Assembly: GCA_027063065.1 (NCBI GenBank)
Contig: JAMOSO010000027.1
Location: 1-49,606 of the forward strand
Source: Planctomycetota bacterium
Lineage (GTDB): Bacteria; Planctomycetota; JAMOSO01
Length of the DNA stretch: 49,606 nucleotides
Direction: 5' to 3'
Below the pieces are notes generated by a model. That model saw only the letters and a list, made by a program, of their open reading frames with translations, ran no database searches and had not been told where the DNA came from. The position numbers and the translations under genes were made by a program. Below, piece by piece: positions 3,593 through 46,985 of the stretch (positions are counted from its first letter, which is position 1; the number at the start of each line of letters is the position of its first letter).

Positions 3593-5641
3593 ATGCAAGA
3601 AGCTATTTTTAAATCATCAGTACTGGTTGAAGCTTTACCATATATGCAGTCGTTTCATAATAAATATGTGGTTGTAAAATTTGGCGGATCAGTTTTTACC
3701 CAAGACGAACATTTACATAATGTATTGCAAGATTTAGTTTTTATGCGTCAAGCTGGAATGCGCCCAGTATTAGTTCATGGCGGTGGTCCATTTATCAATA
3801 AAGCCATGCAAGACAAAGGAATTAAACCTAAATTTATTAATGGGCAACGAGTAACCGACAAAGCAACATTAAATATAGTCTCCGATGTTTTAATTGGTCA
3901 TGTTGGTGAAAGAATTGTTAAAATTATAGAATCTTTTGGTGGCAAAGCCAAAACAGTCAATCGAGAATTGGCAATAGTTGCCGAAAAACACATGCCAGAA
4001 GGTGTTGACTTAGGCTTTGTCGGTAAAATATCTCAAATAAAACACGATATTTTTGAAGAAATATCCAATAACGGAGGTATACCTGTCGTTTCACCTTTAG
4101 GAATGGATATTACTGGACAACTATATAATATAAATGGCGATATTGCCGCATGGAAAATTGCCGCAGACTTAAAAGCAGAAAAATTGGTTTTTCTTTCAAA
4201 TATCAAAGGCATTATGCGTGATATGCATAATGACGACTCACTAATATCAACTATGCGTGTTGAACGTATTGCCGAATACATCAACAATGGCACAATATCT
4301 GGCGGGATGATTCCTAAAGTTAAAGCGGCAGAAAACGCTATCCGTAGCGGAGTACACAAAACGCATATTGTCGATGGACGCTTACGCCACGCCTTATTGC
4401 TAGAAATATTTAGCGAAAAGGGCGTAGGCACTCAAATTATTAAAAGTACTGACCCAGAAGGCTATGCCACATCAGAAACTTTAAAACTATATGACGAATT
4501 TGTTATCGGTAACTATGGCAGACTGCCAGTTGTCATAAACAAAGCCAAAGGCTCAAGAATTTGGGATGTTGAAAATAAAAGCTACTTGGATTTTTTTCCA
4601 GGCTTTGCCGTATCTGGAATAGGATACAATCACGACAAAGTTGTCGAAGCCCTACACAGACAAACCGATGAATTATTACACATTGGCAATAATTTTCATA
4701 TGGAAGCCCAAGCTATTTTGGCAAAATTGATTGCTCAACATTCATATCCCGTCAAAAGTTTTTTCTGCAATTCTGGTGCTGAAGCGAATGAAGCGGCTAT
4801 TAAATTAGCACGTATTTATCATCAAGGTAAACGCAATAAAATAATTACAACCATAGGCAGTTTTCACGGACGTACATTGGGGTCGTTATCTGCGACAGGG
4901 CAAGAAAGTCTACAAAAAGAATTTACCCCCATAGTACCTGGCTTTACTTATATTCCTTTCAATGATATCGACGCATTAAAAGAAATAGATCAAAATACTG
5001 CGGCAGTAATGATTGAACTTATTCAGGGAGAAGGCGGTATAAACGTTGCTACAGAAAAATATGTAAAAAAATTACAAGAAACTTGTCAAAAAAATGGCGT
5101 ATTATTAATAATAGATGAAGTACAAACAGGAATGGGGCGTACAGGAAAATACTTTAGTTTTCAACACTTTGACATAAAACCTGATATTTTTACACTGGCT
5201 AAAAGTTTAGGTGGAGGAATGGCTATTGGTTCAATGAGTGCAAAACCAGAAATTTCAGCGGCCTTAGTCCCTGGAACACATGGTTCGACTTTTGGTGGAA
5301 ATCCAATGGCGTGTCGAGCAGGAATTGCAGTATTTGAAGCTATTGATGAAGAAAAAATGCTAGATAATGTGGCAGATATACAAAAATTAATGCTAAAAAA
5401 ATTACAAAGTTTAAAATCTAAATATAATATTATTACAGATTTACGCGGCAAAGGTGTAATGATTGGTATACAAGTAGCAAAAAATGGCATGCAAATTATG
5501 CAAGATTGCTTAAAAGCTGGATTAATAATTAATTGCACAAAAGGCGATACTTTAAGAATGTTACCTGCTATAAATATTACCCCTGCTGAAATAGATGAAG
5601 GTTTGGCTATATTTGAAACAATTCTGGAGAAACATCAATGA
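3593..5641 (+). CDS. argBD: Fused acetylglutamate kinase / acetylornithine aminotransferase (ArgB-ArgD)
   Basis: A single 682-residue frame holding two arginine-pathway enzymes. Residues about 1-285 are an N-acetylglutamate kinase (ArgB), with VVVKFGGSVF, LVHGGGPFIN, INGDIAAWKIAADL and SGGMIPKV. Residues about 295-682 are a class-III PLP aminotransferase of the ArgD type, with FCNSGAEANEAAIKLAR, IQGEGG, IIDEVQTGMGRTG and the Schiff-base Lys537 in AKSLGGG. The enzymes catalyse steps 2 and 4 of ornithine synthesis; ArgC (step 3) is not in the window. The frame is open across the join without a stop, so this is a real fusion in the sequence as given. argF follows with a 4-bp ATGA overlap. The aminotransferase half could also act on succinylated substrates. 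Confidence 0.93.
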   Translation: MQEAIFKSSVLVEALPYMQSFHNKYVVVKFGGSVFTQDEHLHNVLQDLVFMRQAGMRPVLVHGGGPFINKAMQDKGIKPKFINGQRVTDKATLNIVSDVLIGHVGERIVKIIESFGGKAKTVNRELAIVAEKHMPEGVDLGFVGKISQIKHDIFEEISNNGGIPVVSPLGMDITGQLYNINGDIAAWKIAADLKAEKLVFLSNIKGIMRDMHNDDSLISTMRVERIAEYINNGTISGGMIPKVKAAENAIRSGVHKTHIVDGRLRHALLLEIFSEKGVGTQIIKSTDPEGYATSETLKLYDEFVIGNYGRLPVVINKAKGSRIWDVENKSYLDFFPGFAVSGIGYNHDKVVEALHRQTDELLHIGNNFHMEAQAILAKLIAQHSYPVKSFFCNSGAEANEAAIKLARIYHQGKRNKIITTIGSFHGRTLGSLSATGQESLQKEFTPIVPGFTYIPFNDIDALKEIDQNTAAVMIELIQGEGGINVATEKYVKKLQETCQKNGVLLIIDEVQTGMGRTGKYFSFQHFDIKPDIFTLAKSLGGGMAIGSMSAKPEISAALVPGTHGSTFGGNPMACRAGIAVFEAIDEEKMLDNVADIQKLMLKKLQSLKSKYNIITDLRGKGVMIGIQVAKNGMQIMQDCLKAGLIINCTKGDTLRMLPAINITPAEIDEGLAIFETILEKHQ

Positions 5642-6552
5642 GACATTTACTAAGTATTGCTGATTTAAGTACAACCGAAATAAAAGAAATTTTAGCCTCT
5701 GCGGTCAAAATGAAAGCAGAGTTAAAAACTGGTGCAAAAGAAAACTGCTGTTCACGTAAAACATTGGCAATGATTTTTGAGAAAGATAGCTTACGCACAA
5801 GATTGTCTTTTGAAATTGGTATGACCCAAATGGGAGGTCACGCCATCAATATTGGCGCAACTCAAATCAAAATGCGCCAACGAGAATCTATTGAAGATAT
5901 CGCCCAAGTAACCAGCAGATTTGCCGATATTATTATGATACGTACTTTTGCTGATAAAGATTTACAAGATTTTGCGCAAAACTCACAAGTACCTGTAATC
6001 AATGGATTAACTGATGGGTTTCATCCTTGCCAAGCAATGGCTGATATTTTAACAGCCCAAGAACATTTTAAATCTTTGGATAATATTAAAATTGCCTATA
6101 TTGGTGACGGCAATAATGTCAGTAATTCTTTAGCTTTAATTTGTGATAAATTAAATATCCCATTTGCCATAGCTACACCTAAAGGCTATGAACTAGACTG
6201 TAAACTTTTACAACAGTACGGTGCTGATACATCTAAAATATTACAAAGCAATGACGTCAACCAAGTAGCTGAATGTTCTAATATTTTATATACAGATGTT
6301 TGGACAAGTATGGGACAAGAAGCCGAAAAAGAAAAACGCCTTAAAGATTTTAAAGGTTATCAGATAAATTTAAACTTAATAAAAAAAGCGATGCCAAATG
6401 CAAAAGTAATGCATTGCTTACCTGCACATCGTGGCGAAGAAATCAGTGCAGATGCTATGGATAGTGATTATTGCATTGCATACGATCAAGCAGAAAATCG
6501 TCTACACGCCCAAAAGGCTATAGTACGTTTTTTATTAGAGCAACAAAACTAA
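5638..6552 (+). CDS. argF: Ornithine carbamoyltransferase
   Basis: A 304-residue carbamoyltransferase converting ornithine and carbamoyl phosphate to citrulline. It has FEKDSLRTRLSFE at residues 48-59 (carbamoyl-phosphate binding; the usual Ser-Thr-Arg-Thr-Arg reads Ser-Leu-Arg-Thr-Arg here), GFHPCQAMADI, GDGNNVSNSL, DVWTSMGQE and HCLPAHRGEE. The last two are typical of ornithine rather than aspartate carbamoyltransferase. The Thr to Leu change at residue 52 is unusual but leaves the two arginines. It overlaps argBD by ATGA and the next gene by one base (TAATG), so the three form a tightly coupled operon. A few related enzymes use acetyl- or succinyl-ornithine, which I cannot exclude. Confidence 0.92.
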   Translation: MRHLLSIADLSTTEIKEILASAVKMKAELKTGAKENCCSRKTLAMIFEKDSLRTRLSFEIGMTQMGGHAINIGATQIKMRQRESIEDIAQVTSRFADIIMIRTFADKDLQDFAQNSQVPVINGLTDGFHPCQAMADILTAQEHFKSLDNIKIAYIGDGNNVSNSLALICDKLNIPFAIATPKGYELDCKLLQQYGADTSKILQSNDVNQVAECSNILYTDVWTSMGQEAEKEKRLKDFKGYQINLNLIKKAMPNAKVMHCLPAHRGEEISADAMDSDYCIAYDQAENRLHAQKAIVRFLLEQQN

Positions 6553-44449: not shown

Positions 44450-45214
44450 ATGGATATAACAACATTAATAGGTTTAGTTTTAGGTACAGCCATGATTGTT
44501 TCTGGTATGGGCTTAGAACATTTAACTGAATATTACCTAGATATGCCATCAGTATATATGGTAATTGGTGGTGGTTTTGCCTCGGCATTATTTACTATTC
44601 CAATGGAAATTATGAAGGGTATGGTTGGTGTAGGTAAAAATACACTGCTAATTACTACTACAGATGTGGCCAAATTAATTGAAGATATGGTATCCTATGC
44701 AGAAATCGCCAGACGTGATGGTATTTTAGCATTAGAACAAGTATGTGATCAAATTTCTGACGAGTTTTTAACTAAAGGATTACGCTTAGCAGTTGACGGA
44801 ACTGATCCAGAATTAATACAAACAATTTTACAAACAGAAGTTGACTGTATTGGAATGCGCCACGAAACTAATTTAAAAATATTTGCATCAATGAGTAAGT
44901 ATTTTCCGGCTTGGGGAATGATTGGAACTTTAGTAGGACTTGTGGCCATGTTATATAATATGTCTGATCCTTCATCTATTGGACCTTCAATGGCTGTTGC
45001 CATTATTACTACTTTATATGGGGCTATTGTAGCTAATTTTATTACTGGCCCAATGGAAGACAAATTAGCAATCAGAAATGACCAAGAATTGTTTGCTAAA
45101 GAAATTATTATACAAGGTGTTATGAGTATTCAATCTGGAGATAATCCACGTATTGTTGAACAAAAGTTAAATATTTATTTAGCTCCTGGCGATCGTAAAG
45201 AATCAGAGGAATAG
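44450..45214 (+). CDS. motA: Flagellar stator protein MotA
   Basis: A 254-residue proton-channel stator subunit with four membrane segments (about 4-22, 30-50, 145-165, 180-200). It has the family signature GTLVGLVAMLYNMSDPSSIGPSMAVAIITTLYGAIVAN and the cytosolic loop with charged residues that contact FliG (IARRDGILALE). It pairs with MotB 9 bp downstream. Whether the ion is H+ or Na+ cannot be decided. Confidence 0.95.
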   Translation: MDITTLIGLVLGTAMIVSGMGLEHLTEYYLDMPSVYMVIGGGFASALFTIPMEIMKGMVGVGKNTLLITTTDVAKLIEDMVSYAEIARRDGILALEQVCDQISDEFLTKGLRLAVDGTDPELIQTILQTEVDCIGMRHETNLKIFASMSKYFPAWGMIGTLVGLVAMLYNMSDPSSIGPSMAVAIITTLYGAIVANFITGPMEDKLAIRNDQELFAKEIIIQGVMSIQSGDNPRIVEQKLNIYLAPGDRKESEE

Positions 45215-45223
45215 GAACTATTA

Positions 45224-45892
45224 ATGGGAAAAAAACACAAATGTCCTCCTACAGGTGCACCAGAATGGATGTGTACATTTGCAGATATGATGACATTATT
45301 AATGTGCTTTTTTGTATTATTAGTGGCTATGTCAACTATTACGCAAACAAAATTAATTGCCGCAATGGGTAGTTTTAGAGCTCATTTAGGTTTTATGCCA
45401 AATCAATTAAGAGTTTTAGCTATATTAAAAAATACCAATACAAACCGCAAAATAAAAGAATCAGTAAAAAAACAAGGCGTTAAAGGCAAGCATGTAAGGG
45501 TTATGACAATTAGAGAAGGTGATAAAATTGTTTTAGGTGGAAAGTTTACCTTTAATCCAGGTAGTGCTGATATCAGACAGGAAGCAATACCAGAATTAAT
45601 TAAAATTACTGATACTTTACGAGGGTATCGCAATATTATCGAAATTACAGGCAATACTTCTTCTGCGCAATTAAGCGCTAATTCTAAATTTAAAGATAAT
45701 TGGGAACTAAGTTGGGAAAGAGCAATGGCAATTGGTAGATTTTTTATAGAAGAAGGTAAAATTAATCCTAAAAGAATTAGAACAAAAGCGGCAGCTCAGT
45801 ATGATCCTGCAGCCAATAATCTATTTGCCGATGGACAAGATAGAAATCGCCGTGTTGAAATATTAGTATCCAATAAAGTAATAAAAAAATAA
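45224..45892 (+). CDS. motB: Flagellar stator protein MotB
   Basis: A 222-residue stator subunit. The short cytosolic N-terminus is followed by a membrane helix with the ion-binding Asp21 in WMCTFADMMTLLMCFFVLLVAM. A periplasmic linker and plug region lead to an OmpA/MotB peptidoglycan-binding domain (about 100-220) with FNPGSADI, NIIEITGNTSS, LSWERAMAIGRFF and DGQDRNRRVEILV. It anchors the stator to the cell wall. Confidence 0.95.
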   Translation: MGKKHKCPPTGAPEWMCTFADMMTLLMCFFVLLVAMSTITQTKLIAAMGSFRAHLGFMPNQLRVLAILKNTNTNRKIKESVKKQGVKGKHVRVMTIREGDKIVLGGKFTFNPGSADIRQEAIPELIKITDTLRGYRNIIEITGNTSSAQLSANSKFKDNWELSWERAMAIGRFFIEEGKINPKRIRTKAAAQYDPAANNLFADGQDRNRRVEILVSNKVIKK

Positions 45893-45990: not shown

Positions 45991-46533
45991 ATGGCAGACG
46001 AAGAAGAAAAAAAAGATGATAAAAAAGAAGGGGCAGAGGATAATGCAAAACAGCCAATGTTCTCAAAAGTCGGATTAATTGTTTTTGTAGTTTGGACAAT
46101 TATTTTAGCTGCTGGTTTGGCGTTTTTTCTAAAGCCAGAAGCACCACCAGAAGGTGAAGAAGCAAAAGTAGAAGTTGTAAAAAAAATAGCCGTTACTGGT
46201 GCTATTGTCGAAATTGGAGCAGTACCTATTACCGTGATTGTTAATGCAACAACTCAAGAAGCAAAATTAATTAATATAGAAGTATCCATAGAACTTGCTT
46301 ATGATGCAGGTGATGAAGCTACTAAAATGGTAGAATCTTTAAAACCTTGGATAAAATCAGAATTAATTACTACTGTACAAAGTCGTGGATTTACTGAATT
46401 AATGAAACCAGAAGCTAAAGATTATATAAAAAATAAACTAAAATCTATTATTGAAAATCGCTTTAAACAAGCTGGGCATACAGAAGTTAAAATTGAAGAT
46501 GTCTTAATAACAAGTTTTATTATTGCTGGTTAA
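45991..46533 (+). CDS. fliL: Flagellar basal-body-associated protein FliL
   Basis: A 180-residue membrane protein that supports the stator. It has an acidic/Lys-rich N-terminus, a membrane helix (about 27-48) and a periplasmic stomatin-like domain with [43 protein letters not shown] and [16 protein letters not shown] at the end. fliN follows after 2 bp; the fliM gene usually found here is absent. Confidence 0.88.
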
Positions 46534-46535
46534 AT

Positions 46536-46985
46536 ATGGCTGATGATAATGCTTTATCACAAGATGAAATAGACGCCTTATTAGGTGGGTCTAGCGACCC
46601 AGCACCTCCTCCGCAAGAAGATATAAAGGCTGAATCTGTTGTAAATAATAAACCAGTTGCAAGTAATGCTGGTTTTGAAGAATTTAAAGCCGAAGAACCT
46701 TCTCAAGAAGAAGCATCGCTTAATATGCTTGATGATGTTACCTTAGATGTCAAAATAGAACTAGGGCGCACTCATATGGATATAAAACGTATCTTAGCAT
46801 TAGGCGAAGGCTCAATTGTAGAGTTAGATAAACTTGCGGGCGATCCTTGCGATATATTAATTAATGAAAAATTAGTAGCACGCGGTGAAGTTTTAGTATT
46901 AAATGAAAATTTTTCCGTTCGCGTTACTGATATAGTTACCCAAGAAGATAGAATTAATTTTGAAAAACGCAGACGAAAACATTAA
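46536..46985 (+). CDS. fliN: Flagellar motor switch protein FliN with FliM/FliY-type CheY-binding N-terminus
   Basis: A 149-residue protein. Residues 7-18 read [12 protein letters not shown], the N-terminal peptide of FliM and FliY that binds phospho-CheY. A Pro/Glu-rich linker (about 19-65) follows, then one SpoA domain (about 68-140: [70 protein letters not shown]), the FliN core. There is no CheC-like domain as in FliY and no FliM middle domain. It forms the base of the C ring. FliM must be encoded elsewhere or be missing. Confidence 0.92.

What the first reader, a model, noticed from the sequence alone, without database searches (positions are those of the whole stretch)
45991..46985. fliM missing and FliN carrying the FliM/FliY CheY-binding peptide
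The usual fliL-fliM-fliN order lacks fliM; fliN follows fliL by 2 bp. The 149-residue FliN starts with [12 protein letters not shown], the phospho-CheY docking peptide of FliM and FliY, but has no FliM-middle or CheC domain. The switch may have shifted CheY binding to FliN, or FliM may be encoded elsewhere.
Basis: partly seen in the sequence, partly recalled or inferred. Interest (0 to 1): 0.65.

Follow-up and report, generated by a model that had tools for sequence, protein, structure and literature searches.

The report
FliN with a CheY-docking peptide
A flagellar motor protein (FliN) in this planctomycete draft genome carries the short hook that catches the chemotaxis signal CheY, which is common in its relatives alongside a normal FliM, and the 'missing' fliM gene most likely falls in an assembly gap next to a second switch gene found elsewhere in the genome.

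Summary
The local observation holds: motA-motB-fliL-fliN, fliN 2 bp after fliL, no fliM between them, and a 149-residue FliN starting [12 protein letters not shown] before a SpoA domain. The inference does not hold. In Planctomycetota relatives the same motB-fliL-fliN cluster with a peptide-bearing FliN is common. All 15 clear cases examined also have a FliM, usually encoded elsewhere, directly upstream of fliY.

No fliM is assembled in this MAG (90.5% complete, 71 contigs). However, contig C43 begins inside a fliY-type gene: at least 4 tandem docking-like peptides, a CheX/CheC-like domain, then SpoA. In 18 relatives fliM lies directly upstream of fliY, so the contig breaks where fliM is expected. 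A published survey (PMC6946799) already reports sporadic EIDAL motifs in FliN and FliY.

Best reading: an ordinary FliM/FliY/FliN switch with extra CheY docking sites, fliM being lost to an assembly gap. A FliM-less switch is not excluded. More unusual are the tandem peptides on FliY, three small stand-alone proteins with docking-like peptides, and an Omnitrophota MAG where the peptide sits on FliN but not on FliM.

The parts
46536..46985 (+). fliN, 149 aa: N-terminal docking-like peptide, linker, SpoA domain
   Evidence: ORF; Pfam FliMN_C; NCBIfam TIGR02480 above its cut-off
46554..46589 (+). CheY-docking-type peptide [12 protein letters not shown] (FliN residues 7-18)
   Evidence: 30.6 bits against a FliM N-terminus matrix, background maximum 8.6, 0 of 5000 shuffles
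46725..46937 (+). SpoA (FliMN_C) domain of FliN
   Evidence: PF01052 E 6.9e-22
45991..46533 (+). fliL
   Evidence: PF03748 E 9.2e-12
45224..45892 (+). motB
   Evidence: PF13677 and PF00691
44450..45214 (+). motA
   Evidence: PF01618
32020..33045 (+). fliG, the switch partner that FliM (or FliY) must contact
   Evidence: PF14842, PF14841 and PF01706 all matched

Best explanation
The gene is a FliN whose N-terminal tail carries a copy of the CheY-docking peptide normally found on FliM and FliY. It works in an ordinary FliG/FliM/FliY/FliN switch of the planctomycete kind. fliN sits in a motA-motB-fliL-fliN cluster, while fliM and fliY sit together elsewhere. In this draft genome fliY is cut by the start of contig C43, and fliM, which the most similar relatives carry immediately upstream of fliY, most likely fell into that assembly gap. 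[quoted passage not shown] Shown: domain content, peptide similarity, gene order in relatives, contig break. Inferred: fliM in the gap, CheY-P binding by the peptides, and their effect on switching.
For: The FliN peptide is far above chance. C43 starts inside a FliY-type gene, 5' open. In 18 relatives fliM is directly upstream of fliY on the same strand, including the families with the best FliY and FliN matches. All 15 clear peptide-bearing FliN genomes also have FliM. motB-fliL-fliN without fliM between is seen in G017, G093, G317, G309 and G240. The MAG is 90.5% complete in 71 contigs. Full or degenerate EIDAL motifs in FliN and FliY, and fliM-fliY adjacent with fliN elsewhere, are already published for other bacteria (PMC6946799).
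Against: fliM itself was not found anywhere in the assembly. In some relatives fliM and fliY are not adjacent (G005, G011, G028, G030, G036, G090), so the gap argument is not certain. No relative closer than phylum is held. FliY here has far more peptides than FliY of relatives, which could be compensation for a lost FliM. Docking was not tested.
Confidence: 0.8

Rival explanations
1. FliM has truly been lost. FliY (CheX-like middle plus SpoA, at least four docking peptides) links FliG to FliN, and FliY and FliN together take over CheY-P docking.
For: No FliM is detected at all in the assembly. FliY here carries tandem docking peptides that the FliY of relatives lacks. A FliM-type N-terminus survives on a 99-aa protein without a FliM body.
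Against: C43 breaks exactly where fliM lies in the most similar relatives. Comparable genomes keep FliM. T. [quoted passage not shown] A reported FliM loss in Aquifex was not borne out in a later search (PMC12199754).
Confidence: 0.1
2. A FliM too divergent for the profiles is present in the assembly.
For: Some planctomycete FliMs match PF02154 only marginally (G024, G057).
Against: Those divergent FliMs still show a SpoA domain, and this genome has only two SpoA proteins, FliN and the C43 FliY. A profile of phylum FliMs at E <= 10 added nothing but a peptide.
Confidence: 0.05
3. The FliN peptide is a non-functional leftover: FliN derives from a FliY-like ancestor by loss of the CheC domain and the peptide no longer binds CheY.
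For: FliN matches the FliY model NF005995 over linker plus SpoA. FliY of Firmicutes and spirochaetes carries the same peptide.
Against: The peptide is kept nearly intact across many families while the linker diverges, which argues for selection.
Confidence: 0.05

Closest known systems
FliN (flagellar switch protein, TIGR02480 / PF01052)
   Same: SpoA domain above the curated cut-offs, length, place after fliL in a flagellar cluster
   Different: carries an N-terminal FliM/FliY-type docking peptide, which E. coli FliN lacks (from general knowledge); reported as sporadic in FliN/FliY by PMC6946799
FliY (B. subtilis and T. maritima type)
   Same: same N-terminal peptide and a SpoA domain of the same kind
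   Different: FliY has a CheC-like phosphatase domain between peptide and SpoA; the window protein has only a linker. The C43 protein of the same genome is the FliY-type one
Campylobacter jejuni FliM/FliY/FliN set (PMC6946799)
   Same: fliY immediately downstream of fliM with fliN elsewhere, as in the planctomycete relatives
   Different: C. jejuni FliY lacks phosphatase active sites according to that paper; an E-x-x-N motif is kept in the C43 FliY here
FliM N-terminal CheY-binding peptide
   Same: LSQxEIDALL core and N-terminal position followed by a flexible linker
   Different: on FliN, not on FliM

Membership tests
FliN | C-terminal SpoA domain above the family cut-off | tested here: met
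   PF01052 76.6 bits against cut-off 23.8; TIGR02480 94.8 against 84.05
FliN | short protein without FliM-middle or CheC domain | tested here: met
   149 aa, only SpoA found
FliY | CheC/CheX-like domain between N-terminal peptide and SpoA | tested here: not met
   window protein has none; the C43 protein has a CheX-like region, PF13690 E 1.3e-5 but 25.5 bits against cut-off 27
FliM/FliY N-terminal docking peptide | LSQxEIDALL-type sequence at the N-terminus above chance | tested here: met
   30.6 bits, 0 of 5000 shuffles
FliM/FliY N-terminal docking peptide | binding of phospho-CheY | not testable with these tools
   needs a binding assay
FliM-less switch | no fliM in a complete genome | tested here: inconclusive
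   none in a 90.5% complete, 71-contig MAG, with a contig break at the expected place

The most novel reading that the evidence does not exclude
This bacterium runs its flagellar switch without FliM: a FliY with four or more tandem CheY-docking peptides plus a docking-competent FliN take over signal reception, while small stand-alone proteins with the same peptide compete for CheY-P.
Probability: 0.08. Interest if true: 0.75.

Novelty: new member of a known kind. Interest (0 to 1): 0.3.

Why it matters
It shows that docking-type peptides on FliN are a recurrent feature of planctomycete switches that also have FliM, so they look like additions, not replacements. The number and position of CheY-P docking sites then becomes a variable trait that can be compared across species. 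The Omnitrophota case, with the peptide on FliN only, would be a natural test of whether docking position matters.

Tried and rejected
A search for another contig end overlapping the C43 start found none. A single-protein scan of genome contigs with the C43 FliY found no relative. Tandem Repeats Finder missed the imperfect peptide repeats; the repeat finder found them. L149 (Paenibacillus) first looked like a FliM without peptide, but only a 272-aa FliM frame was found there, so it was set aside. Peptide-pattern hits in C19, C40 and C55 are internal to unrelated proteins and taken as chance. Structure prediction of the C43 protein was not attempted because its locus came from a tool outside the stated folding rule. 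Paper searches found no planctomycete switch study.

Full report
Observation. The window ends with motA (44450-45214), motB (45224-45892), fliL (45991-46533) and fliN (46536-46985), followed by a polysaccharide-deacetylase-like ORF and dnaN-like ORF, all on the + strand, with 2 bp between fliL and fliN. FliN is 149 aa. Pfam finds one domain, FliMN_C, at 64-134 (E 1.4e-21), and no FliM-middle, CheC or CheX domain. Residues 7-18 are [12 protein letters not shown]. Against a matrix built from FliM N-termini, mostly of relatives, this scores 30.6 bits; the best of 25,462 12-mers from unrelated ORFs scores 8.6, and none of 5000 shuffles of the N-terminus reaches it.

Is fliM missing? PF02154 finds no FliM in the host genome, a MAG with 2.13 Mb in 71 contigs, 90.46% complete. 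A profile from 12 phylum FliMs, searched at E <= 10, finds only the SpoA part of FliN and a 99-aa ORF that shares just the N-terminal peptide. PF01052 finds exactly two SpoA proteins: this FliN and a 418-aa frame that starts at base 1 of contig C43 and is open at its 5' end.

The C43 protein. It carries VSNEEIDALL, VSNDDIDALL, VSNDDIAALF and VSNDDMAALL at 25-28 residue spacing. The first two score 24 and 20 bits, the last two about 7, which alone is within the background range; their repeat register is what supports them. A CheX-like middle domain follows (PF13690 E 1.3e-5, just under its cut-off; weak match to 4hyn, a CheC/FliN fusion protein, E 0.03), then SpoA. The best NCBIfam match is FliY NF006272 over 166-416, below that model's cut-off. 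An E-x-x-N motif like that of CheC/CheX phosphatases is present (DAFGEAIN). It is a FliY-type protein whose start is missing because the contig ends there. A flagellin-like gene follows it.

Relatives. No relative closer than phylum is held. In 18 relatives fliM lies directly upstream of fliY on the same strand; they include the families that give the best FliY matches and the best peptide-bearing FliN matches. In others (G005, G011, G028, G030, G036, G090) the two genes are on different contigs. FliM in the adjacent class begins with LSQ[SN]EVDALL or close variants. The C43 contig thus breaks where fliM would be expected. That, with about 90% completeness and a repeat-rich contig edge, makes loss from the assembly more likely than loss from the organism. 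This last step is inference.

How common is the FliN peptide? Of 392 phylum genomes, 225 match the FliN profile and 194 have a PF02154 match. The clear peptide-bearing FliNs (G004, G031, G017, G093, G196, G293, G125, G249, G329, G259, G340, G240, G309, G317, G323) are all in genomes with FliM. So are looser forms with one or two peptides (G005, G011, G028, G036, G072). motB-fliL-fliN without fliM between is seen in G017, G093, G317, G309 and G240. Outside the phylum, FliY of Firmicutes and spirochaetes carries the same peptide beside a FliM that also has it, and a deltaproteobacterial SpoA protein of FliN size does too (L186). Henderson et al. [quoted passage not shown] The feature is already recorded as a kind.

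Mechanism. Published: phospho-CheY binds the FliM N-terminal peptide, and the tethered CheY may then contact a second site, for which E. coli FliN is a candidate (review PMC7355467). Putting the peptide on FliN and FliY would increase docking sites near that second site. The host has several CheA- and CheW-type frames, so a CheY signal is expected. Binding was not tested.

Rivals. A FliM-less switch remains possible (about 0.1), mainly because this FliY is unlike those of relatives. Against it: the contig break, the retention of FliM in comparable genomes, the report that the T. [quoted passage not shown] A divergent FliM within the assembly is unlikely because divergent FliMs keep a detectable SpoA domain and only two SpoA proteins exist here.

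Verdict. The gene is real and its reading as FliN with a docking-type peptide is right. The reading that the peptide moved to FliN because FliM is gone is not supported. Interest is modest; the side observations (tandem peptides on FliY, small stand-alone proteins with the peptide, Omnitrophota FliM without it) are more unusual than the finding itself.

Noticed in passing
G000 contig C43:1-1257 (L002): FliY-type gene cut by the contig start, with at least four tandem docking-like peptides before a CheX-like and a SpoA domain; FliY of the relatives examined lacks such a tandem array.
   Followed up: partly
G000 C24:10541-10840 (L252) and C41:24052-24312 minus (L272): Two paralogous small proteins (99 and about 92 aa, E 1.6e-6 to each other) with a FliM-type N-terminal peptide (LSQEEIDALLSG, LSNKEINLLLNN) and no switch domain; possible CheY-P decoys. 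Peptide scores 33.0 and 18.8, background maximum 10.9.
   Followed up: partly
G000 C64, around 17199 minus (L261:1308-1547): A 79-aa ORF beginning VNKKNIISQDELDTLLSINGF, also a docking-type N-terminus (score 17.9), of unknown function.
   Followed up: no
L141 (Omnitrophota MAG B26_G9), FliM 4718-5614, FliN 5642-6070: FliM lacks the N-terminal docking peptide and overlaps fliL, while the adjacent FliN has LSQEEIDQLTKG: an apparent case of the peptide on FliN only.
   Followed up: partly
L234 (G323), L235 (G309), L237 (G317), L241 (G036), L243 (G072), L244 (G028): FliN N-termini of several planctomycetes hold two docking-like motifs in tandem.
   Followed up: no
G000 C17 (L253:946-2451): A 501-aa acidic protein with about five xLDxLL repeats and no Pfam domain above cut-off, next to a LacI-HTH/PilZ protein.
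   Followed up: no
PHROG phrog_8774: A phage protein family of unknown function weakly matches the FliM-type N-terminus of the C24 protein (E 0.004).
   Followed up: no
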